Source: Nocardia vinacea
GTDB lineage: Bacteria; Actinomycetota; Actinomycetes; Mycobacteriales; Mycobacteriaceae
Direction: 5' to 3'
Length of the DNA: 64,000 nt
Assembly: GCF_035920345.1 (NCBI RefSeq)
Contig: NZ_CP109149.1
Location: 806,001 to 870,000, forward strand
The notes under the pieces were generated by a model. That model saw only the letters and a program-made list of their open reading frames with translations. It ran no database searches and was not told the DNA's origin. Position numbers and translations under genes: made by a program. How positions within the stretch are numbered: position 1 is the first letter of the stretch; each line of letters begins with the position of its first letter. Below are positions 4,563 to 62,309 of this stretch, piece by piece.

Positions 4563-5327
4563 TCACCTGGTCGGCGCATCCTCGGTGTCCTGGGCCTTGA
4601 ATTCGGCCTTCCATTCGCGGAAGCCCTCCTCGGTGCGGCCGCGCCGCCAATAGCCGGAGATCGAGTTCGCCCATTCGGCGGAGACGCCACGTTCACGGCG
4701 GACGTAGCGGCGCAGGTCCTGCATGACGGCGCGGGCCTCGCCGTGGATGAACACCTGCACCTGGCCCTCGCGCCACGTCGCCGCGCGTACAGCTTCGGCC
4801 AGCGCATCGCCGGGCTCGCGTGAGCCGCGATACAGCCAGGTCAGCTCGATGCCGGTCGGCTTGTCCAGCTTCAGTTCGTCATCGGGTCCGGCGACCTCGA
4901 CGAAGGCCTGTCCGACCGCGTCGGCGGACATACCCTCCAGCGCGGCCGCGATCGCGGGCAGTGCTGCCTCGTCGCCCGCCAGCAGGTGCCAGTCGGCATC
5001 GGCACGCGGCGCATAGGCTCCGCCCGGTCCGAAGCAGTCGATGGTGTCGCCTGGCTGCACCGAAGCGGCCCACGGACCGGCAATGCCCTCGTCGCCGTGG
5101 TAGACGAAGTCCACGGCCAGCTCACGGGCCTCCGGATCGACCGAGCGCACAGTGTAGGTGCGCAACACATCGATACCGTCGTGCGGGTAAATGAACTTCA
5201 CATACGAGTCGGTGAACTCGCTCGGCCGAAACGCGGCGAATCCGGGTCCGCCGAAATACACCCGGATCAGATGCGGGGTCAGCCGCTCGGTGCGCTGCAC
5301 CGTCAGGGTGGTGCGGGGTCGTGCCAA
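4563..5327 (-). CDS. Siderophore-interacting protein (flavin ferric-siderophore reductase, ViuB/SIP family)
   Basis: Cytoplasmic FAD enzyme that reduces imported ferric siderophore. It has an N-terminal FAD-binding domain with the Arg-x-Tyr-x flavin motif (VLRTYTVRSVD) and a C-terminal SIP domain beginning near HLLAGDEAALPAIAAALE. About 254 residues, family length. The start is taken as TTG 5327 because GGAGG lies 5 bases upstream. A GTG at 5339 in the same frame adds four residues but has no SD. A candidate IdeR/DtxR box sits 23 bases upstream, consistent with iron repression. Divergent neighbour: nitroreductase. Confidence 0.9.
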   Translation of the reverse strand: MARPRTTLTVQRTERLTPHLIRVYFGGPGFAAFRPSEFTDSYVKFIYPHDGIDVLRTYTVRSVDPEARELAVDFVYHGDEGIAGPWAASVQPGDTIDCFGPGGAYAPRADADWHLLAGDEAALPAIAAALEGMSADAVGQAFVEVAGPDDELKLDKPTGIELTWLYRGSREPGDALAEAVRAATWREGQVQVFIHGEARAVMQDLRRYVRRERGVSAEWANSISGYWRRGRTEEGFREWKAEFKAQDTEDAPTR

Positions 5328-5349
5328 GGTAACCTCCACTAATTGCTAA

Positions 5350-5368
5350 TTAGGCTTGCCTTACCAAC
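5350..5368 (-). promoter_or_regulatory. Candidate IdeR/DtxR iron box
   Basis: TTAGGCTTGCCTTACCAAC resembles the 19-bp IdeR/DtxR consensus TTAGGTTAGGCTAACCTAA at about 13 positions, including the TTAGG and ACC ends. It is placed immediately upstream of the siderophore-interacting gene, whose family is classically iron repressed. Confidence 0.6.
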
Positions 5369-5438
5369 CGTACCCGGTTCGGTTCATGCTGAGGGTTACC
5401 GCAGACGGGCGCGCCGTAGATGTCACAGGATGATCGGC

Positions 5439-6266
5439 ATGACGCAGACCGTGCCGAGCCCCGCCCACGCCGTCCAGCAGCGCTATCGGGATCCCGATCC
5501 GACCGAGCCCGCCGAGTGGAATCCGGTGCTGCAGGTGCTGCATGAGCACCGTTCGGTGCGCCGCTACCTCGCCGATCCGGTCTCCGACGACACCCTGCGG
5601 TTGCTCATCTCGGCGGCCCAATCCGCGCCGACCTCCTCCAATCTGCAGGTGTGGAGCGTCATCGCGGTCCGCGATCCGGCGCGCAAGGCCCGCCTGGCCG
5701 CGCTGGCCGGCGGGCAGGCACATATCGAACAGGCGCCGGTGCTGCTGGTGTTCACCGCCGATTTCGCCCGGCTGCGCCAACTGGCCGAGGACCACGAAGC
5801 GCCACTGGCCGGTGCCGACTACCTCGAATCGAGCTATGTCGGTTTCATCGATGCCGCCCTGGCCGCGCAGAACGCGGTCGTCGCCGCGGAATCCCTCGGC
5901 CTCGGCACCGTCTACATCGGTGCGATCCGCAACAACCCGGAACAGGTTGCGGCGGAACTGAAACTGCCCGAACAGGTCTTCGCGGTCTTCGGACTCGTTG
6001 TCGGACATCCGGATCCGAGCGAGGACGCCCGCGTCAAACCGCGCCTCCCGCAACCGGCGGTCCTCCACCACGAAACCTACGACCTGCCCACCCAACGCAC
6101 CCACGTCGCGGCCTACGAAGACCGCATCGCCGAGTTCTACGCCGAACAGCGACTCTCGCACTCCTGGACCGAGCGCGTCCTGGCCCGCCTCGCCTCCGCC
6201 GCCAGCCTCAACGGCCGCCACCGGCTCCGCGAGTCCCTGGCGAATCACGGCTTCCGCCTGCACTGA
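5439..6266 (+). CDS. Nitroreductase-family NADPH-dependent flavin oxidoreductase (NfsA/FRP-like)
   Basis: FMN oxidoreductase of 275 residues; homologues reduce nitroaromatics, quinones or flavin. The N-terminal FMN-binding signature HRSVRRYLADPV is followed by AAQSAPTSSNLQVWS. Mid-domain AAESLGLGTVYIGAIRNNPE and a C-terminal VVGHPD block are typical of the NfsA/FRP subgroup. ATG 5439 is preferred since AGGA ends 8 bases before it; ATG 5430 (adding MIG) is possible. It is divergent from the siderophore-interacting gene and shares its upstream region, so iron-linked co-regulation and supply of reduced flavin are conceivable but inferred. Confidence 0.88.
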   Translation: MTQTVPSPAHAVQQRYRDPDPTEPAEWNPVLQVLHEHRSVRRYLADPVSDDTLRLLISAAQSAPTSSNLQVWSVIAVRDPARKARLAALAGGQAHIEQAPVLLVFTADFARLRQLAEDHEAPLAGADYLESSYVGFIDAALAAQNAVVAAESLGLGTVYIGAIRNNPEQVAAELKLPEQVFAVFGLVVGHPDPSEDARVKPRLPQPAVLHHETYDLPTQRTHVAAYEDRIAEFYAEQRLSHSWTERVLARLASAASLNGRHRLRESLANHGFRLH

Positions 6267-6363
6267 TCGCGGTGTGGTTCGGGTCGCCCGGCGCTCCGGT
6301 GGTGCGGCCGGTAGCGTGACGGGCTGATCGATCTCGAGCTCCAGGGGAAGGACCGCACGATCC

Positions 6364-7794
6364 ATGACAGCCTCTGACCGTCAGCTACAAGCTGATTCGG
6401 CGCCCACTGACCCGGCCGTATCCGGTGAAGAGGGGTACTCCCGGGGGCTGAGCCCGCGGACCATTCAGATGATCGCGATCGGTGGTGCGATCGGCACGGG
6501 TCTTTTCTATGGTGCGGGCGGTGCGATCGAGCAGGCGGGGCCGGGGCTGATCCTGGCCTATCTCGCGGCGGGTCTGGCGATCTTCGTGATCATGCGGGCG
6601 CTGGGGGAGTTACTGACCTACCGGCCGATCTCGGGCAGCTTCGCCGAGTACGCGCACGAATTCCTCGGGCGCTTCGCGGGATTCGTCACCGGGTGGTCGT
6701 ACTGGGCGGTGTGGGTGGCCACTTGTATGGCCGAGATCACTGTCGCCGGGAAGTATGTGCAGTACTGGTTCGATATCGCGCCGTGGCTGACCGCGCTGGT
6801 GGTGTTGGCGGTCATGTTCTGCGCCAACCTGATCTCGGTGCGGCTGTTCGGTGAGGGCGAATTCTGGTTCTCCGCCATCAAGGTCACCGCGATCGTCGCG
6901 ATGATCCTCATCGGCATCGGAGTGCTGACGATCGGCTTCGGCCATGCCGCCAACCCGACGGTCACCAATCTGTGGGCCGATGGCGGTATGTTCCCGAACG
7001 GTTTCGGACAGTCGCTGCTGGTGCTGCAGATCGTGCTGTTCGCCTACGTCGGCGTCGAACTGGTCGGTGTGACCGCGGGCGAGGCGCGGGATCCGCGCAC
7101 GACGCTGCGCAAGGCGATCAACACCCTGCCGTTCCGCATCGGCCTGTTCTATGTGGGCGCGCTCGTGGTGATCATGTCGGTGGCCAGCTGGCGTAACTTC
7201 CACGCGGGTAACAGCCCGTTTGTCGAGGTGTTCCAGCAGATCGGCATTCCAGGTGCCGCGGGAATCATCAATTTCGTGCTGCTCACCGCGGCGCTGTCGT
7301 CGTGCAATTCGGGCATCTACTCCACCGGCCGCATGCTGCGCACCCTGTCGCTGCACGGGGAAGCGCCCGCGGGGCTGAACAAGCTCAGTTCGCGCGCGGT
7401 GCCGTATGTCGGCATCATCGCTTCGGCGGCCGCGATGGTCATCGGGGTGATCGTCAATGTGATCTCGCCGGACAAGGCGTTCAACTACATCACCTCGGTC
7501 AGCACCATCGGCATCATCTTCGTCTGGGGCGTAATCTTGGTGTGTCACTTGATCTATCGCGCCAAGGTCGGCCGTGGTGAACTGCCCGCCAGCGATTACC
7601 GCCTGCCCGGCGCGCCGATTACCACCTGGCTGGCGCTGGCCTTCCTCGGTTTGGTTGTCGTCCTGCTGTTCTGGACCGACAGCGGGCGCACCGCGATTAT
7701 CGTCGGAGCGGTCTGGGGTGTGCTGGTCTGCGGCGGCTATCTGGCGATGACCAAGCTCGGCAAGGGCGGCGCGGTAACCGAACCGGTGGCATAG
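6364..7794 (+). CDS. Amino acid permease (APC superfamily, GABA/aromatic permease-like)
   Basis: Twelve-helix cytoplasmic-membrane amino acid transporter, 476 residues, standard length. The N-terminal hallmark LSPRTIQMIAIGGAIGTGL, with a GAIGTGLFYG substrate-binding break in helix 1, is characteristic of the AAT family (GABA, proline, lysine and aromatic permeases). An FAYVGVELVGVTAGEARDP block and the later SSCNSGIYSTGRML block are also typical. Substrate within the family is not determinable. The next gene begins 23 bases downstream behind GGAGG, so they may be co-transcribed. Confidence 0.92.
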   Translation: MTASDRQLQADSAPTDPAVSGEEGYSRGLSPRTIQMIAIGGAIGTGLFYGAGGAIEQAGPGLILAYLAAGLAIFVIMRALGELLTYRPISGSFAEYAHEFLGRFAGFVTGWSYWAVWVATCMAEITVAGKYVQYWFDIAPWLTALVVLAVMFCANLISVRLFGEGEFWFSAIKVTAIVAMILIGIGVLTIGFGHAANPTVTNLWADGGMFPNGFGQSLLVLQIVLFAYVGVELVGVTAGEARDPRTTLRKAINTLPFRIGLFYVGALVVIMSVASWRNFHAGNSPFVEVFQQIGIPGAAGIINFVLLTAALSSCNSGIYSTGRMLRTLSLHGEAPAGLNKLSSRAVPYVGIIASAAAMVIGVIVNVISPDKAFNYITSVSTIGIIFVWGVILVCHLIYRAKVGRGELPASDYRLPGAPITTWLALAFLGLVVVLLFWTDSGRTAIIVGAVWGVLVCGGYLAMTKLGKGGAVTEPVA

Positions 7795-51293: not shown

Positions 51294-52366
51294 TGATGCG
51301 CCCCCGCCGAGAGGGCGCTGAGGGTGCGGCCGAGCCAGTCGCTCATTACCTGAAGCGCCTCGGGCATTTTGGATACCGCGCAGTGTCCGGTATCGGGGAT
51401 GAGGTGGCTGCGGGTGTCGCGGCGCCCCTGGAACACCTGCGTGTCGTGGCGTGGTACGTGCACATCGTCGGCACCGTTGAGGACCAGCATCGGCGAGTTG
51501 ATGTCCTGGTCGAGCAGCGAGCGCAGCGAGAAGGCGCCGAATCGTGTGGCCTGCTCATCAGCGGTGGGCTCTCGGTCGAAGCCCAGGGCGTTGCCGACGA
51601 TGCCACCCATACCGAAAGCACCTGCCCCGCGCTTGTCGAACGCTTCTTCGACTGGCCCGCCCAGCACGATGGCCGCGTCGACCTCCCCAGCCAACCCGGA
51701 CCGCGCCGAGTAGTACCCGCCCATCGAGACACCGATATGCGCGACGACACCATTGCCGAGGGTTCGAGCGTGTCCGATGAGGCCGCGAACGATTTCCGCG
51801 CCGCCGTCCGGGGTCATCGGCACGACGGACTCGCCGGTCCCGGCAATATCGAAGGACAGCACCCGAACACGCATGGTCGCGGCGAAGAACACCAGCAGCG
51901 TGTGCACATCCATCTTCCAGCCATCCACACCACCACTGGCGATCACCACCGGCGCATTCGTCGTATCCAAGCCGGGCGGGGTCAGGATGTGCACCGGCAC
52001 GGGCGTGGTCTCGCCCTGGTACGCCACGTCGAGGATCTGTCGCTGGAAGTCGACTCCGAAACCCGGCGCCGCAAGCAGGTACTGCTCGAGCTGCCGGGTC
52101 AGCGCGGTGCGTTTGGCGTCATCGGCGAGAGTGGGGAACTTGGCCCATCCGTATGCCAGCGAGGCGAGCTGATGCGAGCCCGCCTTCGCATACCGGGAAG
52201 CGAGCTCGGACCACTCGTACACCCAGCCGCCGGGCGCGTCGACCCACATATCGGTGATCGCGGCCCGCACCGCGTCCACGTCGGACTCGGGCAGCCCAAG
52301 GCTGACCATCTGCGGATAACGCTCGCCGAACAACGCCTGCGCGTCCAACGACCATTGATACGACAT
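51290..52366 (-). CDS. Alpha/beta hydrolase (FrsA / DUF1100-like)
   Basis: 358-residue hydrolase with a helical N-terminal domain followed by an alpha/beta core. Nucleophile HIGVSMGGYYSA, acid VLNGADDVHVP, histidine IPDTGHCAVS. This architecture occurs in C-C-bond hydrolases such as 2,6-dihydroxypseudooxynicotine hydrolase and in esterases. ATG 52366 has AAAGGAG 5 bases upstream. First gene of the operon hydrolase-cyclase-ligase-Mce, divergent from TetR. Two operators occupy the shared gap. Confidence 0.88.
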   Translation of the reverse strand: MSYQWSLDAQALFGERYPQMVSLGLPESDVDAVRAAITDMWVDAPGGWVYEWSELASRYAKAGSHQLASLAYGWAKFPTLADDAKRTALTRQLEQYLLAAPGFGVDFQRQILDVAYQGETTPVPVHILTPPGLDTTNAPVVIASGGVDGWKMDVHTLLVFFAATMRVRVLSFDIAGTGESVVPMTPDGGAEIVRGLIGHARTLGNGVVAHIGVSMGGYYSARSGLAGEVDAAIVLGGPVEEAFDKRGAGAFGMGGIVGNALGFDREPTADEQATRFGAFSLRSLLDQDINSPMLVLNGADDVHVPRHDTQVFQGRRDTRSHLIPDTGHCAVSKMPEALQVMSDWLGRTLSALSAGAHQ

Positions 52367-52394
52367 CGCGACTCCTTTGACACCCGTCAGCATT

Positions 52395-52413
52395 AACGCA
52401 AGTACCCTGCGTT
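52395..52413. promoter_or_regulatory. TetR operator 1 (AACGCA-N7-TGCGTT)
   Basis: Perfect 6-bp inverted arms around 7 bases, in the gap between the 52366 hydrolase start and the TetR start. Located 29 bases upstream of the hydrolase ATG, suited to blocking its promoter. Confidence 0.7.
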
Positions 52414-52442
52414 TGCAGAACGGTACGACACTCGCCACGGTT

Positions 52443-52461
52443 AACGCAAGGCTGCTGCATT
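52443..52461. promoter_or_regulatory. TetR operator 2 (AACGCA-N7-TGCATT)
   Basis: Same geometry as operator 1 with one arm mismatch. The flanks extend the symmetry to GTTAACGCA / TGCATTAAC (8 of 9). It ends 3 bases before the TetR ATG 52465, implying autorepression. Confidence 0.7.
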
Positions 52462-52464
52462 AAC

Positions 52465-53091
52465 ATGGATGGAGTGAGCGAAGGACAAGTACGGCGCCGC
52501 ACCGGCGGCCGGTCCGCCCGAGTCCGCCAAGCCGTGCTGGACGCCACCCTGCAGGCGATGGCAGAGCACGGCCCCGACGCGGTCAGCGTCGCCGAGGTCG
52601 CTCGGCAGGCGGGGGTGCACGAGACGTCGATCTATCGCCGGTGGGGCACCCGTGAGCAGCTGATTCTCGACGCCCTGCTGAGCTACAGTCAGCAACAACT
52701 CCCCGTTCCCGACACCGGAACGCTGCGCGAGGACCTGGTGACCTTCGCGCACTCGGTGGCGCACTATCTGGCCGGCTCCCTCGGCAAGGCGCTGACCCGG
52801 TCGATGGCCGTCTCCGGCGATGACCCGGTACTTGCCGCCAATCGTGCCCAGTTCTGGCAGTCGCGACTCGACCTGGCTCGCGTCATGATCGACCGCGCCG
52901 TCGCCCGCGGCGAACTGCCCGAGGACACCGACGCGGCGGCGGCCCTCGAACTGCTGATCGCGCCATTGCACTTCCGGGCACTGCTCACCCGGCAATCCAT
53001 CGACGATCGCCATGTCCGGCAGCTGGTCGACGCGTTGCTTCATGGATTGCTCGGCAGTCGGCAAGTTGCGCAACAGCTCGGCAGCACTTAA
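52465..53091 (+). CDS. TetR-family regulator of the hydrolase/acetoacetyl-CoA ligase operon
   Basis: 208 residues. HTH SVAEVARQAGVHETSIYRRWGTREQLIL after an N-terminal basic tail; the ligand domain is of the TetR C-terminal type. ATG 52465 lies right after operator 2 with no SD, suggesting a leaderless transcript; GTG 52474 is an alternative. Three matching operators (two in its divergent gap, one upstream of the next hydrolase) suggest that it controls both flanking transcription units. Confidence 0.9.
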   Translation: MDGVSEGQVRRRTGGRSARVRQAVLDATLQAMAEHGPDAVSVAEVARQAGVHETSIYRRWGTREQLILDALLSYSQQQLPVPDTGTLREDLVTFAHSVAHYLAGSLGKALTRSMAVSGDDPVLAANRAQFWQSRLDLARVMIDRAVARGELPEDTDAAAALELLIAPLHFRALLTRQSIDDRHVRQLVDALLHGLLGSRQVAQQLGST

Positions 53092-53112
53092 AGCAAGCAA
53101 CTTGCCTTAAGC
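53087..53112 (+). terminator. Hairpin terminator of the TetR gene
   Basis: CTTAAAGCAAG (53087-53097) pairs with CTTGCCTTAAG (53102-53112), 10 of 11 bp with a 4-base loop. It begins within the TetR stop codon region and is followed by CTTTTCGG. Confidence 0.65.
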
Positions 53113-53135
53113 TTTTCGGCAGGCTACGGTCGACA

Positions 53136-53154
53136 ACGCAATTCTCCTGCGTTT
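53136..53154. promoter_or_regulatory. TetR operator 3 (AACGCA-N7-TGCGTT)
   Basis: A third copy with perfect arms, 68 bases before ATG 53222 and 109 before 53263, and after the TetR terminator. It suggests a separate regulated promoter for the downstream hydrolase. Confidence 0.65.
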
Positions 53155-53262
53155 ACGCTGCCGCGCCCCTTCCGGGAACACTCAGCGACCAAAGCGCACG
53201 AAACCGGAATCGAGGCATGCCATGACTGGACGCAGTTTCGCACGCAAGCTGTTCACCAGCAC

Positions 53263-54555
53263 ATGCGCGCTCACCCACGCCACCGAACCTGCCGCGAAAA
53301 GGCTGGGTTCGGCGTTCTTTCTGCCCGCGTTGCCTTCGTAGACCGATTCACCCATCTGGGCGGGATCGACACACAGTTGTTCACCGAACAACTGGACCGT
53401 TGCCGTTCGTTCCGTGACGAGCGATGGGCAGGCCACTGGCAACAGATCGCCGCGGACCACGCGAACGTCGCTGACGCGGCGTTGGCTCAGCTCGGAGGTC
53501 CGAGCGTCAAAGAACTGCTCACCGGTGGCGTCGATATCGTGGCGCTGGGCGAGTTGCTGGCGCCTGCGGTGTCCATCCTGTCCGAGCGCGGAGCAGTGGC
53601 CACACCTGATGCTGTGGCCGAATTCTGCCGAACCAACAACGGCGTCGGAGAACAAGCGGCGATAGCGGTGGATGCCCTGATCAAGGTCATCACCTACAAG
53701 TTCGCCGCCGCCTGGCCGGGCTGGACACCACATCGCCTCGAAGCCCACAGCGAGTCGCGGCGACTCTGCGAGGTGCTCACCGAAGCGCTGGCCTCGGCGA
53801 TGGACGTGCGGATCGAACATATCGACATCCCGGTACCCGGCGGCGACGTCGTCCACGGCACCGCGGTGTTCCCCCTCGACGCCGAGAACTCGCCAATGGC
53901 GTTGTTGTCCAACGGTCTCGAGGGCACGGTGGCCGAATTGCTGCTACCTGCGTTGTCCTATCGTCCGGCCGGGATGGGCTTGTTCATCATGGAGATGCCC
54001 GGCACCTACACCTACCGGCAGCCCCTCGCCGCGGATGCCGATCAGGTGTATCTCGCGGTCGTCGACCGGCTCGCCGCGGACCGCCGCGTCGACGCCGATC
54101 GCATCGGCATGCTCGGACTCAGCTTCGGCGCGTACTGGTCCACCCGCATGGCCGCCACCGACCCGCGCCTGCGCGCCGTCGTCTCCAACGGCGCACCGAC
54201 ACACCGCACGTTCCAACCCGCCGGCAACCTCGGTGTACCCGAGATCATCATCTGGACGCTGGCGCATGCGACGCAGGCCCGCAACACCGTGGACTTGACC
54301 AGGAAGCTGAATGCCCTGTCGCTGAAGGACCGCTACCACACGATCACCACCCCGCTGCTGGTGATCAACGGCGAAACCGACACCCTCGTCAGTACCCAAG
54401 ACTCGATCGACATCGCCACCCACGCGCCCAACGCCCTGCTGAAGCTCTACCCGGGCGACGACCACTGCGCGATGGCACACGCACCGGAATGGTTCGAACT
54501 GTCCATGCGCTTCCTGGCCGACCACCTGACCCACGACACCACCACCAACAGCTGA
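53263..54555 (+). CDS. Alpha/beta hydrolase (FrsA-like), possibly with a frame problem at its 5' end
   Basis: 430-residue frame whose hydrolase core is intact: GMLGLSFGAYWST has the nucleophile, VINGETDTLVS the acid and YPGDDHCAMAHA the histidine. The N-terminal helical part (FTHLGGIDTQLFTEQLDRCRSFRDERW) is like the 51290 hydrolase group in architecture. The start is doubtful: the best SD (GAGG) precedes ATG 53222 in another frame (MTGRSFARKLFTST...), which stops at 53341 where the hydrolase-like sequence begins. Either a frameshift or a short leader ORF is present. Single gene behind operator 3. Confidence 0.8.
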   Translation: MRAHPRHRTCREKAGFGVLSARVAFVDRFTHLGGIDTQLFTEQLDRCRSFRDERWAGHWQQIAADHANVADAALAQLGGPSVKELLTGGVDIVALGELLAPAVSILSERGAVATPDAVAEFCRTNNGVGEQAAIAVDALIKVITYKFAAAWPGWTPHRLEAHSESRRLCEVLTEALASAMDVRIEHIDIPVPGGDVVHGTAVFPLDAENSPMALLSNGLEGTVAELLLPALSYRPAGMGLFIMEMPGTYTYRQPLAADADQVYLAVVDRLAADRRVDADRIGMLGLSFGAYWSTRMAATDPRLRAVVSNGAPTHRTFQPAGNLGVPEIIIWTLAHATQARNTVDLTRKLNALSLKDRYHTITTPLLVINGETDTLVSTQDSIDIATHAPNALLKLYPGDDHCAMAHAPEWFELSMRFLADHLTHDTTTNS

Positions 54556-54680
54556 CCGAGTGGGCAACTGGCCAGTGACGGTGCCGGACCAGCTCCGGTG
54601 ACCGACTGAGCCACCGCCATCATGCACAGGTCCACACGCACGCTCAACGGCATCAACGAGCAGTCCGCTAGATCAACTGG

Positions 54681-55406
54681 TCACGTCGTGGTGGCAAGAG
54701 CGGTTCGACGGGCTGTCAGCGTGCGGCTGACGACTTCCGGAAATGTAGGTGCCGCGAGGAAGATGGTCGTGGCGCGGCGGACTCGGTCATCGAGCTGAGC
54801 CAGCTTGTCGTTCGCTGCGGCAAGGCTGACTCGCAGTCCCTTGGCCTCGCCGAGCCATCCTTCCTGCTCAGCCTCGGCGACGCGCAGAGTGAGATTGTCT
54901 CGGATCTGTTCCAGCCGGCCGCGCTGCACTGGGTCGACCCGCAGGACGGGGCAACGGATGCAGCTGTGCTCATGCTGGCAGGTCGTTCCGTATGCGCGGC
55001 CGCATTCGCCGAGTGCGACCTTGCGGCGTTCGAAATGGCCTAGGAATTCGTCCCATTCGGCGTCGGTCGGCACGCGGTATTCTTCGCTGGGCCGCAGTGC
55101 GCGGCGACGTGCGATGAAGGCACGATGGCCGTTGATGGCTTCTTCGGGATAGACGGCCTTGTAGCCCATGGTTGTGGTTATTTCCCTGTGCCCCAACAAC
55201 GTTTGAGCGATGTGCGGTGGCATGCCGTTGAGGATGGCTTCGGTGGTGAAGATGCGTCGCAGGTCGTGGGGCTGCCTGGTGGCGTGGGCCGGGTCGGTGG
55301 CCGCACGCGTGGGCAATGGATCGGTGACCGCCTGTGCATGAGAAGCCGCTGTCGCAGTCGAGAGCAACTCGCGTGCATAACTATCAGCTGCATGGTGTTG
55401 GGCCAA
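54681..55406 (-). pseudogene. Tyrosine recombinase C-terminal fragment
   Basis: The C-terminal part of a phage/XerC-type integrase. Box II HxLR-like PHDLRRIFTTEAIL, the LLGH box (AQTLLGHREITTTM) and the active-site Tyr region GYKAVYPEEAI are present, followed by a zinc-ribbon-like CQHEHSCIRCP tail typical of one actinobacterial integrase subgroup. The N-terminal domain and the box I Arg are missing. The break lies around 55350-55406 near the IS3 relic. Inactive. Confidence 0.8.
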
Positions 55407-55604
55407 GCTCGGGAAAACTCGAAAGGTTCAGCCTGCGAATGAAGTTGACAAGGCTCACTCATGCCGGTGGTCGGTGGTGGGTACGGAACCTATTGAGAGG
55501 GTGGCTGACTACTACGCTGTTGCCGCGGCCCGCGAACAGGAGTGTCGGATCCAGGCTCACGCTGGGGCGTTGGAGGTATCCAGGGACCCCTTGGGCGTTC
55601 TTGG

Positions 55605-55802
55605 TCCAAAACCGAGCTGATCAAGCCCCGCGGTCCGTGGCGCAGCGTCGACCACGTCGAACTGGCCACCGCCGAGTGGGTCGACTGGTTCAACCATCGG
55701 CGCCTCTATCGGTACTGCGGCGACATGCCGCCGATCGAGATGGAGGCCGCCCACTACGCTCAACAACCAGACAGGCAACCCGCCGGGCTGTCACACCAAT
55801 AA
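55605..55802 (+). pseudogene. IS3-family transposase (OrfB) C-terminal relic
   Basis: KTELIKPRGPWRSVDHVELA followed by TAEWVDWFNHRRLYRYCGDMPP matches the C-terminal integrase-core end of IS3-family transposases, including the final acidic region and the typical WFNHRRL. It ends with a stop at 55800-55802. The upstream catalytic part is missing. Confidence 0.85.
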
Positions 55803-56206
55803 GTCTCCGGACTCGCCGGGACGGCTCAGCCTGGTTGCGTGGGCATTGGCACATCGAGAACCGAGTGCACTGCGTCCGCGATGTCACCTGTCGACGAGGA
55901 TCGGTGCCGGGTCCGCACCGGCGCCCGAGCGCAAGTGATGGCCACCTTGCGAAACACAACGATCGGTCTGTTACGCATAAGCGGCCATCACAAACATCGC
56001 CCACGGTCTTCGCCGCTACCGCTCCTACCTGCACCAACGACCCTTAGAACTGCTCAAGAGGTGCTAAAGGGACTTTGCCGGGCCCCTGCCGCTTATCGCA
56101 GTTCTCCCGGGCCTGATGGTCCAGGGAGACGCTCGTTCGCACGTGCCAATACGTCGACGGCAATATCTCACCGTCAAGTAATTGCTTAGCACAAGTAACA
56201 TATGTA

Positions 56207-56229
56207 TAGTTGTGTAGTACAAGCAACTA
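56207..56229. promoter_or_regulatory. Dyad upstream of the MarR-MFS-YceI operon
   Basis: TAGTTG (56207-56212) and CAACTA (56224-56229) are perfect inverted arms around 11 bases, with TGTAGTACA nearly symmetric in the centre. It lies 21 bases upstream of the MarR start and is a likely autoregulatory site. Outer TTGCTT/AAGCAA and an ACATATGT palindrome are nearby. Confidence 0.5.
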
Positions 56230-56249
56230 ATCTCGTGCTGGGAGTGGGC

Positions 56250-56747
56250 ATGGCAGTGTCACCCGATGCGGCTCAGGGCCTGATAAAGGAGCTCTATTTC
56301 ATGGGCCGGGCGATCCGCGCTGCCCTTTCGCACCCGGAAGAAGGGCAGCTGCTTCCGGGCGGTGTCGGCGTGCTGGGCTCCCTCGAGGCCAGGGGGCCGT
56401 GCCGGCAGGTGGATCTGGCCGTGGACTTGTGCATCAGCCCATCGACACTGAGCAGGCAGGTCGCCGAGCTGGTGAGCTCCGGCGACATTGCCCGCCATGC
56501 CGATCCCAGCGACGGCCGGGCCACCCTCATCCAAATCACCGACCAAGGACGCGATCTGCTGCGGCGCATCCGGGTGTCGCGGGCGCGGGGATTGCAGGCT
56601 GCGCTCGCCGATTGGAGCGAGGACGAAGCCGCGCAGGCCGCGATGGTTGTTCAGAAGCTCAGGAATTCACTGGCCGCGGTTGCCCACCACACGACGGTGG
56701 GTGAGTGCGAGCCGGTTTCGACGGAGAGTCAGGAAGTGGATGTCTAA
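56250..56747 (+). CDS. MarR-family regulator of the MFS/YceI operon
   Basis: 165 residues. Winged helix CRQVDLAVDLCISPSTLSRQVAELVSSGDIARHADPSD, wing GRATLIQITDQGRDLL, C-terminal dimer helix. ATG 56250 has GGAG 6 bases upstream. It overlaps the MFS start by 8 bases (56740-56747), so the regulator and exporter are translationally coupled, the standard layout of drug-responsive MarR-exporter operons. Likely autoregulated through the upstream dyad. Confidence 0.9.
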   Translation: MAVSPDAAQGLIKELYFMGRAIRAALSHPEEGQLLPGGVGVLGSLEARGPCRQVDLAVDLCISPSTLSRQVAELVSSGDIARHADPSDGRATLIQITDQGRDLLRRIRVSRARGLQAALADWSEDEAAQAAMVVQKLRNSLAAVAHHTTVGECEPVSTESQEVDV

Positions 56748-59328
56748 TTCAGTCGATGCGGGGCCGCGGCGCGATCCGGACGCGATGACCCATCGTCAGG
56801 TCCTGGAAGCCCTGACCGGGTTGCTGGCGGCGCTGTTCACGGCGCTGCTCAGCACCACGATCGTCTCGACCGCGCTGCCGACGATCATCGGTGATCTGCA
56901 GGGGTCGCAGACCGCATACGCCTGGGTCATCACCACGGCGCTGCTGGCCAATGCGGCATCCACCCCGATCTGGGGCAAGTTCGCCGACCTGTTCAATAAG
57001 AAGCTGCTGGTCCAATCGGCCATCGTCATCTTCGTCGCCGGCTCGATCATCGCCGGAGTCGCGCACAACGTGCCGGTGCTGTTGGTCGCTCGCGTCGTCC
57101 AAGGTATCGGCATGGGCGGGTTGACCGCCCTGGTCGTGGCGATCATCGGTTCGATCGTCGCGCCTCGCGAACGCGGTCGGTACTCGGGCTATATGGGCGC
57201 GGTAATGGCGGTATCGATGTCGGGCGGCCCCATCCTCGGCGGCGTCATCGTCGACAGCCCGCTCGGCTGGCGCTGGTGCTTCTTCGTGTGCGTGCCCATC
57301 GCGGTGATCGCGCTGGTGCTGCTGCAGCGGACGCTGCGGCTGCCCACCGAGCGCAAGGCGGGTGTGTCGATCGACTGGCTAGGTGCGGCGCTGCTGACCG
57401 CCGGTGTTTCGGTGCTGCTGATCTGGGTGTCGTTCGCCGGAAAGGCGAACTACTACGCCTGGATCTCCACGCAGTCGGCGCTCTACGTCGGTGCCGGTGT
57501 ACTGCTGCTGATCGCGACCGTGTGGGTCGAGTCCCGCGCCAAGTCGCCGATCATCCCGTTGTCCATCGTCACCGAACGCACTACGGGTCTGGCGATCATC
57601 GCCTCGATCGCCGTCGGTGTCGGCATGTTCGGTGCGACCACCTTCCTCGGACAGTACTTCCAGACCGCGCGCGGCTACTCGCCGACCGTGGCGGGTGTTC
57701 TGACCATCCCGCTGGTGGCTGGCATGCTGACCGCATCGGTCGGCTCCGGCCAGCTGATCACCCGGTTCGGCAAGTGGAAGAGCTTCGTCGTCAGCGGCGG
57801 TGCGCTGCTGGTGGTCGGTTTCGGGCTGCTGTCCACGATCGACCACGCGACCAACCTGTGGCTGGTCGGCATCTACATCGCTGTCGTCGGGCTCGGCGTC
57901 GGCATGATGATGCAGAACCTGGTGCTGGCCGTGCAGAACACCGTGAGCGTGCACAATATCGGCGCGGCATCCAGCAGCGTCGCCTTCTTCCGCACCTTCG
58001 GCGGCGCGATCGGGGTATCGGTCCTTGGGTCGGTGCTGGCAACCCAGGTCAGCGATCTGTCCAAGGAAGGGTTTGCCAAACTCGGCATTCAGACGACCTC
58101 TTCCGGCGGCGGCAACCTCGATCTCGACGCCCTCCCCGGACCCATCGCCACCATCGTGCGCGCATCCTACGGCGACGCGACCGGCCGGATCTTCCTGATC
58201 GCCGCGGCCGCAACGGTCGTCGCCCTCATCGCGACCGCCTTCCTGCCGAACCGCCCGCTGCGCCGCACGATCGACATCGATCCGGGCCTCGACCCGACCA
58301 CGAAAGAGTCTGCGTCGCAGGACAATCCGACCGCAGCGGACGACATGGCGGCACTGGATGCCGAACTGGCCGCATTCGCGGAGTCGAGCTGGGACGAAAA
58401 CCAACTCTGGGAGGGCGCCGAGCGGGTGTTGTCCGAGCCTGAACCGGTGCCGGCAGCGTCGGTCAATGGGCATGGGGCGGTGGAACAGAACGGTCGTGTG
58501 TACCGAGTCGTCGCGTCGTCGCAGACCGGTCTGTCGACGGACGGGTTGTCCGGGTCGGACTCCGGTGGTGCGGCGTTGGGTGGTCGTGTCCATCGTGAGG
58601 ACGGTCGTCCGGTGCCGGGTGCGGTGTTGACGTTGATCGACCAGGGTGGCCGTCAGCTCGCGCGTGCGAGCAGTGCCGCTGATGGTGGTTATGCGATCAC
58701 CGCGCCCCAGACGGGTGGCTATGTGTTGATCGTGTCGGCGATGGGGCATCAGCCGACTGCGGTCACTGTGTCGATCGGTCAGCGGCCCCAGCACCTGGAT
58801 CTGACCTTGGTGGGTTCGGGTGAGTTGTCGGGTGTGGTCCGTACCGCCGGCCACGGTGTGCCGTTGTCGGGTGCGACCGTCACATTGACCGACGTGCATG
58901 GTGAAGTGGTCGGAGCGGCTGTCACCGGCGACGACGGCACCTACGTGTGCCACGGTGTGGTGTCGGGTGTCTATACCTTGGTCGCGGTCGCTGAGCAAAT
59001 GCGTCCCAGTGCCACCACATTGACGGTGCCCGACAGTGGTGTGTTGCGTCATGACATCGAGTTGGCTGCGATGGCGGTACTTGCCGGGTCCGCGTGCGCC
59101 GACGGCCGGGCGGTGCCCGATGTGCTGGTCAGTGTGCTCGACGCAGCCTGTGAGGTGACCGCGACGGCACGCACCGACGAGAACGGCCGCTATGTCGTGA
59201 CCGATCTGCGCGAGGGGCAGTACACCGTGGTTGCCCGTGGTTATCCGCCGGTGACCGGGCAGGTCACTGTGTCGGGTGGCGAGGTCGCCTATGACGTGCG
59301 ACTCGGTTACGAGCCTGGAGGTCGTTGA
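56740..59328 (+). CDS. DHA2-type MFS exporter fused to three carboxypeptidase-regulatory-like repeats
   Basis: 862 residues, about 350 longer than ordinary DHA2 exporters. Residues 1-505 are the 14-helix MFS domain: motif A IWGKFADLFNKKLL, motif C GPILGGVIVDSPLGWRWCFF. A polar linker (505-610) contains acidic and Gly/Ser-rich stretches. Three CarboxypepD_reg/Cna-B-like repeats follow (about 612-692, 695-775, 778-860), each with V-P-G/S-A-x-V-T-L and D-G-x-Y turns, for example GRPVPGAVLTLID and NGRYVVTDLREGQYTVVARG. The repeats recur at the N-terminus of the YceI protein encoded next, whose start overlaps by one base (TGATG). The C-terminus is expected in the cytoplasm. Confidence 0.93.
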   Translation: MSNSVDAGPRRDPDAMTHRQVLEALTGLLAALFTALLSTTIVSTALPTIIGDLQGSQTAYAWVITTALLANAASTPIWGKFADLFNKKLLVQSAIVIFVAGSIIAGVAHNVPVLLVARVVQGIGMGGLTALVVAIIGSIVAPRERGRYSGYMGAVMAVSMSGGPILGGVIVDSPLGWRWCFFVCVPIAVIALVLLQRTLRLPTERKAGVSIDWLGAALLTAGVSVLLIWVSFAGKANYYAWISTQSALYVGAGVLLLIATVWVESRAKSPIIPLSIVTERTTGLAIIASIAVGVGMFGATTFLGQYFQTARGYSPTVAGVLTIPLVAGMLTASVGSGQLITRFGKWKSFVVSGGALLVVGFGLLSTIDHATNLWLVGIYIAVVGLGVGMMMQNLVLAVQNTVSVHNIGAASSSVAFFRTFGGAIGVSVLGSVLATQVSDLSKEGFAKLGIQTTSSGGGNLDLDALPGPIATIVRASYGDATGRIFLIAAAATVVALIATAFLPNRPLRRTIDIDPGLDPTTKESASQDNPTAADDMAALDAELAAFAESSWDENQLWEGAERVLSEPEPVPAASVNGHGAVEQNGRVYRVVASSQTGLSTDGLSGSDSGGAALGGRVHREDGRPVPGAVLTLIDQGGRQLARASSAADGGYAITAPQTGGYVLIVSAMGHQPTAVTVSIGQRPQHLDLTLVGSGELSGVVRTAGHGVPLSGATVTLTDVHGEVVGAAVTGDDGTYVCHGVVSGVYTLVAVAEQMRPSATTLTVPDSGVLRHDIELAAMAVLAGSACADGRAVPDVLVSVLDAACEVTATARTDENGRYVVTDLREGQYTVVARGYPPVTGQVTVSGGEVAYDVRLGYEPGGR

Positions 59329-60149
59329 TGAGTGGGGTGACCGGTCGTGTTTGCACCGTTCAGGGGTGGCCGGTGCCGGATGCGGTGTTGACGGTGACGG
59401 ACATGCGGGGCCGCCAGATCGCCCGTGCGGTTGCCGACGAGACGGGGGAGGTGGGCACCGAGCTGTTGCCTGCCGGTGTTCATACCGCGGTGCTCACTGC
59501 TGTCGGGTTCGAACCGGTGGCGCGGAGCGTGCAGATCTCTTCGGTGGGGACGGGTGTGCTCGGTGAGGTGGTGTTGGTGCCGGTCGAGGGGGCGGTGGCG
59601 TCGCCGCCGCCGGGGCCGTGGACGATCGATCCGGTGCATTCGACGGTGATCGCAACTGTGCGTCATCTGGGTATCGCGAGTATCAAGGCCCGCTTCGCGG
59701 AGGTGAGTGGGCGGCTCGATATTGCCGAGCCGTTCGAACGGTCCACCGGGCACGCGGAGATCAAGGCCGCGGGTATCGATACCGGTAACTCGATGCGTGA
59801 CAATCACCTGCGCTCACCCGAGTTCCTGGATGTCGACACTTATCCGACGATCATTTTCACCGGAAGCGGGTTGCGTCGTACCAGTGGTGACACGTGGGTG
59901 ATGCCGGGTGAGCTGACCCTGCACGGGCAGTGTCGCGCGGTCGATCTCGACGTGACCTATGGCGGGTTCGGACCGGACCCGTGGGGTGGTGTGCGTGCCG
60001 CGTTCCACGCCGAAACACTACTGCACCGCAACGATTTCGCGATCGATTACAACGCGGTCGTGCGCGCGGGAGTAGCCGCGGTCGGCACCAGCGTCAAACT
60101 CGACCTCGACATCGAAGTCGTACAAGGCGACCAGCTACCCGCAATCTAG
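59328..60149 (+). CDS. YceI-family (lipocalin-like) protein with N-terminal regulatory-like repeat
   Basis: 273 residues. Residues 1-85 form a fourth carboxypeptidase-regulatory-like repeat (TGRVCTVQGWPVPDAVLTVTDMRG), closely matching those on the exporter. Residues about 95-270 are a YceI domain: WTIDPVHSTVIATVRHLGIASIKARF and GNSMRDNHLRSPEFLDVDTYPTIIF. The closing LDLDIEVV strand is present. YceI proteins bind isoprenoid or other hydrophobic chains. No signal peptide is visible, so it is probably cytoplasmic. Coupled to the exporter by TGATG; likely delivers a hydrophobic substrate to it (inference). Confidence 0.92.
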   Translation: MSGVTGRVCTVQGWPVPDAVLTVTDMRGRQIARAVADETGEVGTELLPAGVHTAVLTAVGFEPVARSVQISSVGTGVLGEVVLVPVEGAVASPPPGPWTIDPVHSTVIATVRHLGIASIKARFAEVSGRLDIAEPFERSTGHAEIKAAGIDTGNSMRDNHLRSPEFLDVDTYPTIIFTGSGLRRTSGDTWVMPGELTLHGQCRAVDLDVTYGGFGPDPWGGVRAAFHAETLLHRNDFAIDYNAVVRAGVAAVGTSVKLDLDIEVVQGDQLPAI

Positions 60150-60689
60150 CTAACTGCCGCCGAAATACCTTGTACTGGAATAACATTGGGTGATCCGTGC
60201 GTCCGCGACGAAGGATGGAGTGGGGATGATGCGGTCAGTCGTTGTCGATGCGCGTCGGCTGGCGGGGCGAAGGCGTGGTTTGTGCACCGTGGCGACCGGA
60301 TTGTCGGCGGGACGAATGAGGTTGTCGTCGACCGCGTGCCGGTACAGGCAGCGCAGGGCACTGACAGCGGAATGGACGGTGGCGTACCCGCCGCGATCCT
60401 GGGCGCGTACCTGCCGCTGGGACTGGATCATTGCGAGCAACTGCTTGAATTCCGACGCCGAAGGTTCATCGATGCGCCGATCCGGCCACAGGGCGATCAT
60501 GCGCTGCCAATACCCCAGATAGCAGTCCCGCGTGGAGGTCGCGGGCATGGCCGCATACACCACCGGCACATACTCGGCGAAAGTCGGCACCGTCGATCCC
60601 GGCCCGGCACTGTCTCGCAGGTCGTCGAGGCTGACACCGAGGCGTTCGAGCAGCAACGCGGCGGTGTGTATATCGGCGCTCGAGGTCAT
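60150..60689 (-). pseudogene. Tyrosine recombinase N-terminal fragment
   Basis: 179-residue frame. The first 145 residues are a SAM-like core-binding domain of an actinobacterial tyrosine recombinase (TFAEYVPVVYAAMPATSTRDCYLGYWQRMI and AVSALRCLYRHAVDDNLIRPADNPV). The catalytic domain is absent; the reading frame ends in unrelated sequence (DRIIPTPSF...). ATG 60689 overlaps the AbrB gene stop by four bases. Different subgroup from the C-terminal fragment at 54681, so these are two separate relics. Confidence 0.75.
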
Positions 60690-61150
60690 CGCGCGCTCAC
60701 TTCCGCGACCACAGCGCCGCAGGCGCGATGCAGCATCTGCTCGACCAGAGCCGGAGCCAGGACGAGCAGGATCCCCGCTTGCGGGTGCGCAGCGATCAAT
60801 ACGTTATCGCCAGCGCGCACGTCGATACGCCGACGCGCCCGCGCGGGCACTCGCAGGGCGCCACCCGCGCCGATCCGCAACCCCGCCCCGGCGCCGGGGC
60901 CGACCACCAGCATGTCCGAACAGATGCTCCAGGCGAGCGCGGTGTGCGGCGTCCACCCCACATGCGACAACACATCCTGCACCAAGACCCGACCGTTGAC
61001 GTCGACCCGGCGGATGCCGCACCGCCACTGCAGCTTCGGCACCGAGGCCGCGCGGAACAGTTCGGTGACCGGACGGTGCTGGCCGTCACCATGCGGCGCG
61101 CTCCTCTCAGCCTTGCCCGGTAGAACAGGTGTCAGAAAATCGGGTGTCAT
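60686..61150 (-). CDS. AbrB/SpoVT-like DNA-binding protein paired with integrase
   Basis: 154 residues. The C-terminal half has a swapped-hairpin AbrB-type fold signature (GGALRVPARARRRIDVRAGDNVLIAAHPQAGILLVLAP). The N-terminal half is of unknown fold. AbrB-domain proteins directly upstream of a tyrosine recombinase are a recurrent actinobacterial module. Here the recombinase has lost its catalytic domain, so the gene may be a survivor without function. ATG 61150; no strong SD seen. Confidence 0.7.
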   Translation of the reverse strand: MTPDFLTPVLPGKAERSAPHGDGQHRPVTELFRAASVPKLQWRCGIRRVDVNGRVLVQDVLSHVGWTPHTALAWSICSDMLVVGPGAGAGLRIGAGGALRVPARARRRIDVRAGDNVLIAAHPQAGILLVLAPALVEQMLHRACGAVVAEVSAR

Positions 61151-61200
61151 CGCTACCGTTCGCTTCCCGTGCCGTCACTCCGTAACAGCACAACTTATGG

Positions 61201-61212
61201 AGCGAATTCGCT
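61201..61212. promoter_or_regulatory. Perfect 12-bp palindrome AGCGAATTCGCT
   Basis: Lies 16 bases before the MarR start 61229 and 50 after the AbrB start, in the divergent gap. Its AATT core is shared with OhrR-type sites. Candidate operator of the OhrR-like protein. Confidence 0.55.
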
Positions 61213-61228
61213 GGGATACAGTGTTCTG

Positions 61229-61768
61229 ATGCCCGAAGAAGCGCATTCCACACCAGTGGTGCGTGGCGGAGCGGCCGCGGGGTCCGATGGTGTTACCGCA
61301 ACCGTCGGGGGAACCGATGCCGACCTGCTCTCGCTCGCATCACAGCTGTGTTTTGCTCTGTACTCCACATCCCGATCGATGACGGCGGCATACCGGCCGT
61401 TTCTCGAGGGGATGGGTATTACCTATCCGCAGTATCTGGCCCTGCTGGCGTTGTGGGGGCGGCCCGCGATGACCATGAAGGAACTCGGCGAACAGTTGCA
61501 GCTGGACTATGGCACGGTCTCACCGCTCATCCAGCGACTCCAGGCACATGGTCTGGTCGAGAGCGTCCGGAGTGCCAACGACCGCCGCGCCGTCGAACTG
61601 CGCGCCACCGAAGCCGGACGCGCCCTGCAACCGCAGGCCCGGCAGATGATCGAGGCGGTCATGGCCGAGGTCGGCTATCCGATCGAGCATCTCATCCGGC
61701 TGCGCGACCAGGTCAACGCGCTCGGCGCCCGCCTCGACGCGGCCGTTGCCGAGCGATCCGGCCGGTAA
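61229..61768 (+). CDS. OhrR-like MarR-family redox regulator
   Basis: 179 residues, second OhrR-like protein in the window. After a 30-residue disordered N-terminus, the sensing Cys is at position 41 in SQLCFALYSTSRSM, followed by YPQYLALLALWG and the winged helix MTMKELGEQLQLDYGTVSPLIQRL with wing DRRAVELRAT. No ohr gene is adjacent; the divergent neighbour is the AbrB protein. It may regulate the nearby YceI/MFS operon or a distant target. ATG 61229 without strong SD. Confidence 0.88.
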   Translation: MPEEAHSTPVVRGGAAAGSDGVTATVGGTDADLLSLASQLCFALYSTSRSMTAAYRPFLEGMGITYPQYLALLALWGRPAMTMKELGEQLQLDYGTVSPLIQRLQAHGLVESVRSANDRRAVELRATEAGRALQPQARQMIEAVMAEVGYPIEHLIRLRDQVNALGARLDAAVAERSGR

Positions 61769-62309
61769 TCACCGTCCGCCCTGACTCGTGCGCCGAGTTC
61801 GGGAGTCGAGTAACTCGGGCCTGCCGATCGACCACCGGCGGTTCGGAGTCGTTGTCGGTCAGCCACCAATGTCGGCCAGGGCTTGGAAGGCTCGTTTCGG
61901 GCAGCTTGCCGCCGAAGCGCTTTCGAACCTTGGCCGCTGTGTCGGCCAGCGCGGCGTTGATGCGGGTGTTGGCGTCGGCGAGGCCGGCCATGCCGCCGGA
62001 TCGCCACTGCTGAATGTTTCGATCCTGGCGTAGGTATCGGCTCCAGGGAGGAAACCGGTGGCGAACAGACTCAGTTCGCATCGGCATCGACATCATCCGA
62101 TCCGCAGAACACTGGCGTGCCACGGTCGGCGTGCACTTAAGCTGACACATCCGGTGCTTGGTCGTAGTCCGCTGCACGGGAAGTGCCGATTGGGATGCGC
62201 TGCTGCCGCAGCCGATCCGGCAGCGAGATTGCCGTTCCGACGAATGTGAATTGCCGAGTTCCCCATCGGTCGAGCGTGCCGTCCTGACCGAGCACCAGGA
62301 AGCCCGCCT

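What the first reader, a model, noticed from the sequence alone, without database searches (positions are those of the whole stretch)
56207..60149. MarR-controlled exporter whose cytoplasmic tail shares repeats with a co-encoded YceI carrier
Seen: a DHA2 MFS exporter carries three C-terminal carboxypeptidase-regulatory-like repeats, and the coupled next gene has a fourth repeat fused to a YceI lipocalin-like domain. Known: YceI binds isoprenoid chains, 14-helix DHA2 proteins have cytoplasmic C-termini, and such repeats are usually extracellular. Inferred: YceI picks up a hydrophobic compound in the cytoplasm and docks on the exporter through repeat-repeat contacts. This would be a two-protein lipid or quinone efflux system with an unusual docking tail.
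Basis: partly seen in the sequence, partly recalled or inferred. Interest (0 to 1): 0.85.

Follow-up and report, generated by a model that had tools for sequence, protein, structure and literature searches.

The report
Drug-type exporter with matching cytosolic lipocalin
A Nocardia gene trio encodes a regulator, a drug-type exporter with an unusual tail inside the cell, and a lipid-pocket protein carrying the same kind of domain; comparison with related operons shows that tail and pocket protein were inherited together while the membrane part was exchanged, which suggests, without proving it, that the pocket protein feeds or controls the exporter.

Summary
Observation confirmed. Window 56250-60149 holds an overlapping operon: MarR; a 14-helix DHA2-like MFS exporter (862 aa) with three CarboxypepD_reg repeats after its last helix; and YceI (273 aa) with one N-terminal repeat and no evident signal peptide. 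Sequence topology puts the tail in the cytoplasm.

The pairing is real. All 11 strong repeat-YceI hits in 396 actinobacterial genomes, 29 of 33 in 69 Nocardia genomes (51, 52) and 42 of 44 named loci of this type (39) lie directly behind an exporter tail. In Nocardia the same YceI follows either of two exporter types whose cores are 37% identical. Pairwise identities of tail and YceI correlate at 0.84, core and YceI at 0.14-0.18 (90); the breakpoint lies just after helix 14 (62).

This favours docking over chance adjacency. Against it: 101 of 130 Nocardia tail hits have no YceI beside them; the YceI repeat is not a recent tail copy (47); four genomes keep YceI apart; no complex could be modelled.

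Most likely a cytosolic lipocalin tethered to the exporter by the tail, delivering or sensing a hydrophobic compound. Ligand, contact and direction are not shown. New variant of a known kind.

The parts
56181..56199 (+). probable MarR operator 1 (TTGCTT-N5-AAGTAA dyad)
   Evidence: present with small changes in 8 aligned upstream regions (window and L156-L162) while the DNA further upstream is not alike; the shared DNA block starts at 56179 or 56182 in 5 of the 8 loci that align over the whole operon
56208..56228 (+). probable MarR operator 2 (GTTG..T-N5-AAGCAAC dyad)
   Evidence: same alignment, with more changes in L160
56250..56747 (+). MarR-family regulator, first gene of the operon
   Evidence: PF01047 37.6 bits; start chosen by comparison with relatives
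56740..59328 (+). DHA2-like MFS exporter with C-terminal repeat tail, 862 aa
56791..58239 (+). membrane core, 14 transmembrane helices (residues 18-500), type A core
   Evidence: hydropathy and loop charges; 14 long helices in the AlphaFold2 model
58240..58572 (+). linker, residues 501-611, mostly predicted disordered; contains the SSWDE..WEGA..VLSEPEPV stretch; the history breakpoint lies here
   Evidence: pLDDT under 50 at 512-609; identity profile
58573..58815 (+). tail repeat R1
   Evidence: PF13620, beta strands in the model
58816..59067 (+). tail repeat R2
   Evidence: PF13620
59068..59313 (+). tail repeat R3
   Evidence: PF13620
59328..60149 (+). repeat-YceI protein, 273 aa, no evident signal peptide
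   Evidence: PF04264 131.6 bits; AlphaFold2 mean pLDDT 89.3
59328..59579 (+). N-terminal CarboxypepD_reg repeat of YceI
   Evidence: PF13620 33.2 bits, cut-off 32.3; Foldseek match to the transthyretin-like domain of carboxypeptidase D, E 1.2e-3
59619..60125 (+). YceI lipocalin-like domain
   Evidence: best PDB match 1wub, polyisoprenoid-binding TT1927b, TM 0.85 by target length, E 1.8e-27 by sequence

Best explanation
A movable operon, probably autoregulated by MarR, for a two-protein export unit. The 14-helix exporter carries, on a flexible linker of about 100 residues, a cytoplasmic array of three transthyretin-like repeats. The co-translated cytosolic YceI lipocalin is held at that array through its own N-terminal repeat and hands a hydrophobic molecule (an isoprenoid or quinone-like lipid, or a hydrophobic drug) to the exporter's inward-open cavity. 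When ligand accumulates, MarR releases its operators and the unit is made. Shown: gene order, overlap, domains, inside location by sequence, conservation of the pair, co-inheritance of tail and YceI against exchange of the core, conserved operator-like dyads. Inferred: contact, ligand, transfer, induction.
For: Adjacency: 11 of 11 hits above 340 bits, 29 of 33, 42 of 44. All 33 YceI-bearing Nocardia genomes have a tailed exporter hit, against 27 of the 36 others (Fisher p 0.0023; kinship of the genomes not corrected for). Core exchanged with tail and YceI kept, with a probable second case in Pseudonocardia. MFS-YceI overlap of 1 or 4 nt in 20 of 24 measured Nocardia loci. The operon is a discrete DNA block with unlike flanks in 8 of 10 loci compared. 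Tail inside, YceI begins at its repeat. The YceI fold is that of isoprenoid-binding YceI proteins. The top PDB matches of the core are lipid and drug exporters: Rv1410 homologue MHAS2168, EfpA, EmrB, QacA. YceI-family BcnA binds tocopherol and menaquinone more tightly than antibiotics (PMC5350466, passages).
Against: 101 of 130 tail hits in Nocardia are not next to this YceI, so the tail has some use without it, or YceI acts in trans. The YceI repeat groups with repeats of YceI proteins that have no tailed exporter beside them (group B). Four of 33 genomes keep YceI away from any tailed exporter hit. Tail-YceI co-inheritance can also follow from one crossover upstream of both. Within Nocardia the tails still separate by core type (one change, support 73), so there was no repeated tail exchange there. 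No complex model, ligand or expression data.
Confidence: 0.45

Rival explanations
1. YceI is a ligand-sensing regulatory subunit: when filled it binds the tail and gates the exporter, but does not carry cargo.
For: Same adjacency, overlap and co-inheritance data; a 100-residue disordered linker suits a regulatory tether.
Against: MarR could already supply sensing; YceI proteins are known to me as binders, not regulators (recalled; BcnA passages).
Confidence: 0.15
2. The repeats are generic self-association domains. Tails cluster tailed exporters, and YceI joins the same cluster or simply keeps an inherited domain; it protects membrane quinones or lipids on its own.
For: Tails occur on many exporters without YceI, up to 9 tail hits per Nocardia genome; repeat-YceI also exists without a tailed exporter in the held flanks, 34 of 80 loci.
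Against: Does not explain why this YceI type is nearly always coupled to a tailed exporter, or why it stayed with the tail through a core exchange.
Confidence: 0.2
3. Operon neighbours without contact: co-regulated detoxification genes moved together as a cassette, and the shared domain is incidental.
For: The operon behaves as a block; co-inheritance of adjacent segments follows from one crossover; repeats are only about 30% identical.
Against: 7 of 9 PF13620 hits of the genome are in these proteins; pairing held in 11 of 11, 29 of 33 and 42 of 44; translational overlap kept with both core types.
Confidence: 0.18
4. The tail is outside the cell and acts as a wall or surface adhesion module.
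For: Tail repeats also match SpaA and SdrD_B models and the TIE protein and a pilin in the PDB.
Against: 14 helices; K+R 17 in loops predicted inside against 7 in loops predicted outside; partner YceI has no evident signal peptide.
Confidence: 0.02

Closest known systems
Rv1410 (P55)-LprG of mycobacteria, triacylglyceride export
   Same: MFS transporter of similar fold (homologue MHAS2168 is the top PDB match) in an operon with a protein that has a hydrophobic pocket (PMC10576003, 12 of 53 passages seen)
   Different: LprG is a lipid-anchored partner on the outer side and receives lipid; YceI here lacks an evident signal peptide, is of the YceI fold, and carries a repeat that the exporter tail also has. 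The paper argues from shuffled operons that Rv1410 and LprG do not bind strongly and specifically
BcnA/LcoA, YceI lipocalin with cytochrome b561 (Burkholderia)
   Same: YceI family, hydrophobic tunnel, binds tocopherol, menaquinone and antibiotics (PMC5350466 and PMC9113575, passages)
   Different: BcnA is secreted and its neighbour is a cytochrome, not an exporter; the solved BcnA chain is 161 residues, without room for the repeat
OtrB/Tcr3 tetracycline-type exporters
   Same: the type B core (P0164) scores 408 and 400 bits on these models, the window core 199 and 192
   Different: the models are 563 and 512 positions long, too short for this tail; all scores are far below the curated cut-offs of 999 and 1000
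SCO4121, MarR-regulated MFS pump of S. coelicolor (Nag and Mehra 2021)
   Same: MarR-controlled actinobacterial MFS pump linked to multidrug and oxidative stress tolerance (title and citing passage only)
   Different: paper not held; whether it has the tail or a YceI neighbour was not tested

Membership tests
YceI lipocalin family (PF04264) | profile match over the curated cut-off | tested here: met
   131.6 bits against 23.7
YceI lipocalin family (PF04264) | YceI beta-barrel fold | tested here: met
   1wub TM 0.85, 7bwl 0.89, 1y0g 0.88 by target length
YceI lipocalin family (PF04264) | isoprenoid or quinone in the tunnel | not testable with these tools
   needs purification and mass spectrometry
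MFS (PF07690) | profile match over the curated cut-off | tested here: met
   160.7 bits against 33.4
DHA2 / EmrB subfamily (TIGR00711) | score over the curated cut-off | tested here: not met
   206.1 against 230.2; the own-genome paralogue P0164 meets it with 242.5
DHA2 / EmrB subfamily (TIGR00711) | 14 transmembrane helices, termini inside | tested here: met
   by sequence and model only
MarR family | PF01047 over the curated cut-off | tested here: met
   37.6 against 24.6
MarR family | binds a dyad in its own promoter | tested here: inconclusive
   two dyads conserved before the gene in 8 aligned loci; binding not tested
Rv1410-LprG system | secreted, lipid-anchored partner | tested here: not met
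   all 18 rows of A1, window included, begin within a few residues of the repeat; judged by eye
BcnA/LcoA system | cytochrome b561 neighbour and secreted YceI | tested here: not met
   neighbours are MarR and MFS; no evident signal peptide
EmrAB/TolC tripartite pump | membrane-fusion adaptor gene in the operon | tested here: not met
   the operon holds MarR, MFS and YceI only; seven flanking frames from 51.3 to 61.8 kb gave no adaptor

The most novel reading that the evidence does not exclude
An interchangeable export platform: one cytosolic lipocalin loader serves several tailed exporters of the cell through a common repeat tail, so that membrane cores and their MarR sensors can be exchanged while the tail-loader interface is kept. 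This would be a cytoplasmic counterpart of the LprG-type lipid partners, with a plug-in design.
Probability: 0.22. Interest if true: 0.85.

Novelty: new variant of a known kind. Interest (0 to 1): 0.62.

Why it matters
How MFS exporters obtain very hydrophobic cargo is poorly understood, and the carrier partners known to me act on the outer side. A widespread actinobacterial exporter with a conserved cytosolic lipocalin and a shared domain would make loading from inside directly testable. It would also offer a role for MFS proteins with CarboxypepD_reg tails: 668 proteins matched the window tail (capped candidate list), and those of the 120 listed that bear a name are nearly all called only MFS transporter or a drug-resistance transporter. 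The core-exchange history is a natural experiment: same tail lineage and YceI, two different membrane cores.

Tried and rejected
Rejected: an extracellular tail; one search also flagged three weak hydrophobic peaks inside the tail (residues 662-751), which the model shows as beta strands and loops. Rejected: recent copying of a tail repeat into YceI; R1, R2, R3 and the YceI repeats are separate lineages. Rejected: continuing exchange of tails inside Nocardia; on the Nocardia tail tree core types A and B need one change (support 73), so one old event suffices. Rejected: a defence system; PADLOC gave nothing for MFS or YceI and one weak hit for MarR.

Led nowhere: neighbours of group B YceI loci (many spurious frames; not taken further). 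An F420-type PPOX oxidoreductase gene lies near 24 of 42 group A loci and 0 of 34 group B loci (two examples over the TIGR03618 cut-off); none was noted in the window's operon. SCO4121 could not be compared. Literature searches for the combination: (0, 1, 1, 2, 10 and 0 papers); going by titles and abstract starts none describes it; only open-licence PMC papers are held.

Results against, limits and dropped rows. The Nocardia A MarR is no nearer to the Streptomyces A MarR (29%) than to the Nocardia B MarR (27%), so MarR follows the core only among Nocardia and Amycolatopsis. Actinomadura cores (L096, L099) fit neither type: 42% to A, 40-42% to B. The Mantel test is passed by core as well as tail (p 0.002 each, 500 permutations), though at 0.18 against 0.84. 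The AU test that puts Nocardia A and B cores together is rejected only narrowly (p 0.0485). For Pseudonocardia the tail tree does not itself show the pair as a clade (not rejected, p 0.37), while the core rejects it (p 0.0011) and YceI shows it (95). The MFS profiles were built from 26 of 120 proteins because the cutting motif missed 94. In some searches at most 5 or 6 candidates per genome were scored and the match list was cut, so misses are possible; up to 32 were scored. Some group B loci have short flanks. I fetched 28 of the 100 solo tail hits of the other Nocardia genomes; all 28 have an MFS core. One Nocardia core (L164) was cut by a contig end and left untyped. The 35 operons were chosen by me, 8 of 10 type A and 9 of 18 type B Nocardia among them. 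In one search spacing was measured in 24 of 28 fetched adjacent loci, one of them (L184) a mis-called start; six further upstream regions were not aligned because no start was found. In one search two of the 42 tails (L097 at a contig edge, L111) showed no core in the same frame.
Full report
WHAT IS THERE. The window lies in a 10.36-Mb single-contig genome; the closest YceI outside it is from Nocardia sp. CA-084685 at 97% identity. Three genes on the + strand overlap: MarR 56250-56747, MFS 56740-59328, YceI 59328-60149. Pfam finds MarR, MFS_1 with three CarboxypepD_reg stretches, and one CarboxypepD_reg plus YceI. YceI starts directly with its repeat; all 18 rows of alignment A1, window included, do so, so I see no signal peptide (no predictor was run).

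TOPOLOGY AND FOLD. Hydropathy gives 14 membrane helices up to residue 502, plus three weak peaks in the tail; loops predicted inside hold 17 K+R and loops predicted outside 7. The AlphaFold2 model (44 sequences, mean pLDDT 74.3, pTM 0.55) has 14 long helices, a low-confidence stretch at 512-609, and beta-strand repeats at about 612-850. Foldseek ranks the Rv1410 homologue MHAS2168, EfpA, EmrB and QacA highest; sequence search gives the same families. The YceI model (55 sequences, mean pLDDT 89.3) matches TT1927b, PA0423, E. coli YceI, BcnB and BcnA, and its repeat matches the transthyretin-like domain of carboxypeptidase D.

IS THE PAIRING REAL. In 396 Actinomycetota genomes, all 11 YceI hits above 340 bits have a tailed-exporter hit upstream within 400 bp on the same strand; 7 weaker listed repeat-YceI hits (203-252 bits) do not (at most 5 or 6 candidates scored per genome). 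Among 80 named loci, 44 are of this YceI type (group A: Nocardia, Amycolatopsis, Streptomyces, Actinomadura, Nocardioides, Actinopolyspora, Pseudonocardia and others); 42 have the tail directly upstream, 40 of these with the membrane core in the same frame, and 36 of the 40 with a MarR hit before it. The exceptions are L076 (N. sienata) and L123 (Saccharomonospora). Thirty-four others (group B, 33 of them Streptomyces) have repeat-YceI without a tailed exporter in the held flanks, and 2 lack the repeat. In 69 Nocardia genomes YceI of this type occurs in 33 and tail hits in 60; 29 of 33 YceI genes are adjacent to a tail, four are not (G423, G424, G444, G409), and in those four the type A exporter with its MarR stands elsewhere (L209, L210, L211, L215). 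None of the 69 has this YceI without a tail hit (33 of 33 against 27 of 36, Fisher p 0.0023; kinship not corrected for). In 20 of 24 measured Nocardia loci MFS and YceI overlap by 1 or 4 nt.

WHAT SPEAKS AGAINST A SIMPLE ONE-TO-ONE DOCK. 101 of the 130 tail hits in those 69 genomes are not next to this YceI, with up to 9 tail hits in one genome. The own genome has one such paralogue at C1:602 kb (P0164), 46% identical overall. In a tree of 245 repeats the YceI repeats of groups A and B form one group (0.97) apart from R2 and R3, with R1 nearest (0.88).

THE CORE EXCHANGE. Exporters behind this YceI come in two main core types. The window, Nocardia neocaledoniensis and Streptomyces have type A; N. 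veterana, Nocardia sp. alder85J, Amycolatopsis, Qaidamihabitans and Planosporangium have type B; Pseudonocardia has both; the two Actinomadura cores fit neither. Among the 29 adjacent Nocardia loci, 10 are type A, 18 type B and 1 untyped. In the 35 operons I chose for trees, Nocardia A and B cores are 37% identical, their tails 65%, their YceI domains 79%; Nocardia A and Streptomyces A cores are 53% identical but their tails only 41%. The A cores form one clade (support 100), while for tail and for YceI the Nocardia A and B rows form one clade (97.9 and 96.6) and a clade of all A operons is rejected (AU p 2e-7 and 1.6e-4). Pairwise identities of tail and YceI correlate at 0.84, core and YceI at 0.14 to 0.18. 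MarR goes with the core inside Nocardia and Amycolatopsis: Nocardia A against B 27%, Nocardia B against Amycolatopsis B 64%; but the Nocardia A MarR is as far from the Streptomyces one (29%), so its origin is open. The similarity profile changes sides between residues 500 and 610, just after helix 14. Pseudonocardia shows a probable second case: core rejects the pair, YceI shows it, tail is undecided. The most economical reading is that a MarR plus membrane core replaced another one upstream of a resident tail and YceI. This is what one expects if tail and YceI work together, but one crossover upstream of both would also do it; that is why I do not call contact shown.

A MOVABLE UNIT. DNA shared between window 52000-62000 and 8 of 10 related loci begins at 56179-56240, near the operator-like dyads, and ends at 60130-60162, at the YceI stop, with no match at E 1e-10 in the flanks held; the other two loci align only over the core. 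Two dyads close to TTGCTT-N5-AAGYAA recur in 8 aligned upstream regions. The three genes therefore look like a self-contained, probably autoregulated unit.

MECHANISM. Best reading (0.45): YceI picks up a hydrophobic molecule in the cytosol or from the inner leaflet, is held at the tail through its repeat, and delivers to the exporter. Candidate ligands are isoprenoid quinones or lipids, since YceI proteins carry isoprenoids and BcnA binds tocopherol and menaquinone more tightly than antibiotics (passages), or aromatic drugs, since the type B core is nearest to OtrB/Tcr3 among the NCBIfam models. Rivals are a gating subunit, a generic clustering domain, and neighbours without contact. No data here decide the ligand or the direction.

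NOVELTY. Searches for the combination in the open-licence library found no description (listings only). It is filed as a new variant of a known kind (MFS exporter with a hydrophobic-pocket partner), new in the cytosolic side, the shared repeat and the exchangeable core.

Noticed in passing
window 54681-55406 (-) and 60150-60689 (-), with 55542-55802 (+): The operon is flanked by a C-terminal piece of a phage-type integrase (PF00589) on the left and an N-terminal SAM-like integrase piece (PF13495, below cut-off) on the right, both on the - strand, plus a transposase core fragment (rve_3, just below cut-off). The cassette may sit inside a former recombinase gene.
   Followed up: partly
69 Nocardia genomes: Tailed MFS exporters look like a large Nocardia family: 130 tail hits in 60 of 69 genomes, up to 9 per genome, 101 without a YceI neighbour.
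   Followed up: partly
L082-L095, L098, L101-L103, L106, L108, L109 downstream; L080, L081, L116 upstream: A TIGR03618-like F420-dependent PPOX oxidoreductase gene lies near the operon in 24 of 42 group A loci and 0 of 34 group B loci (two examples checked).
   Followed up: partly
L012 (G000:C1:597000-609000), ORF 5035-7587: No MarR or YceI was noted beside the own-genome tailed paralogue; the next gene, on the other strand, looks by eye like a DM13-type lipoprotein.
   Followed up: no
L123, Saccharomonospora sp. CUA-673: A MarR hit directly followed by repeat-YceI without an exporter; the YceI frame appears broken.
   Followed up: no
L118-L121, L124-L141, L143-L148, L150-L155: A second repeat-YceI type (34 loci, 33 Streptomyces) without a tailed exporter in the held flanks; its partner, if any, is unknown.
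   Followed up: partly
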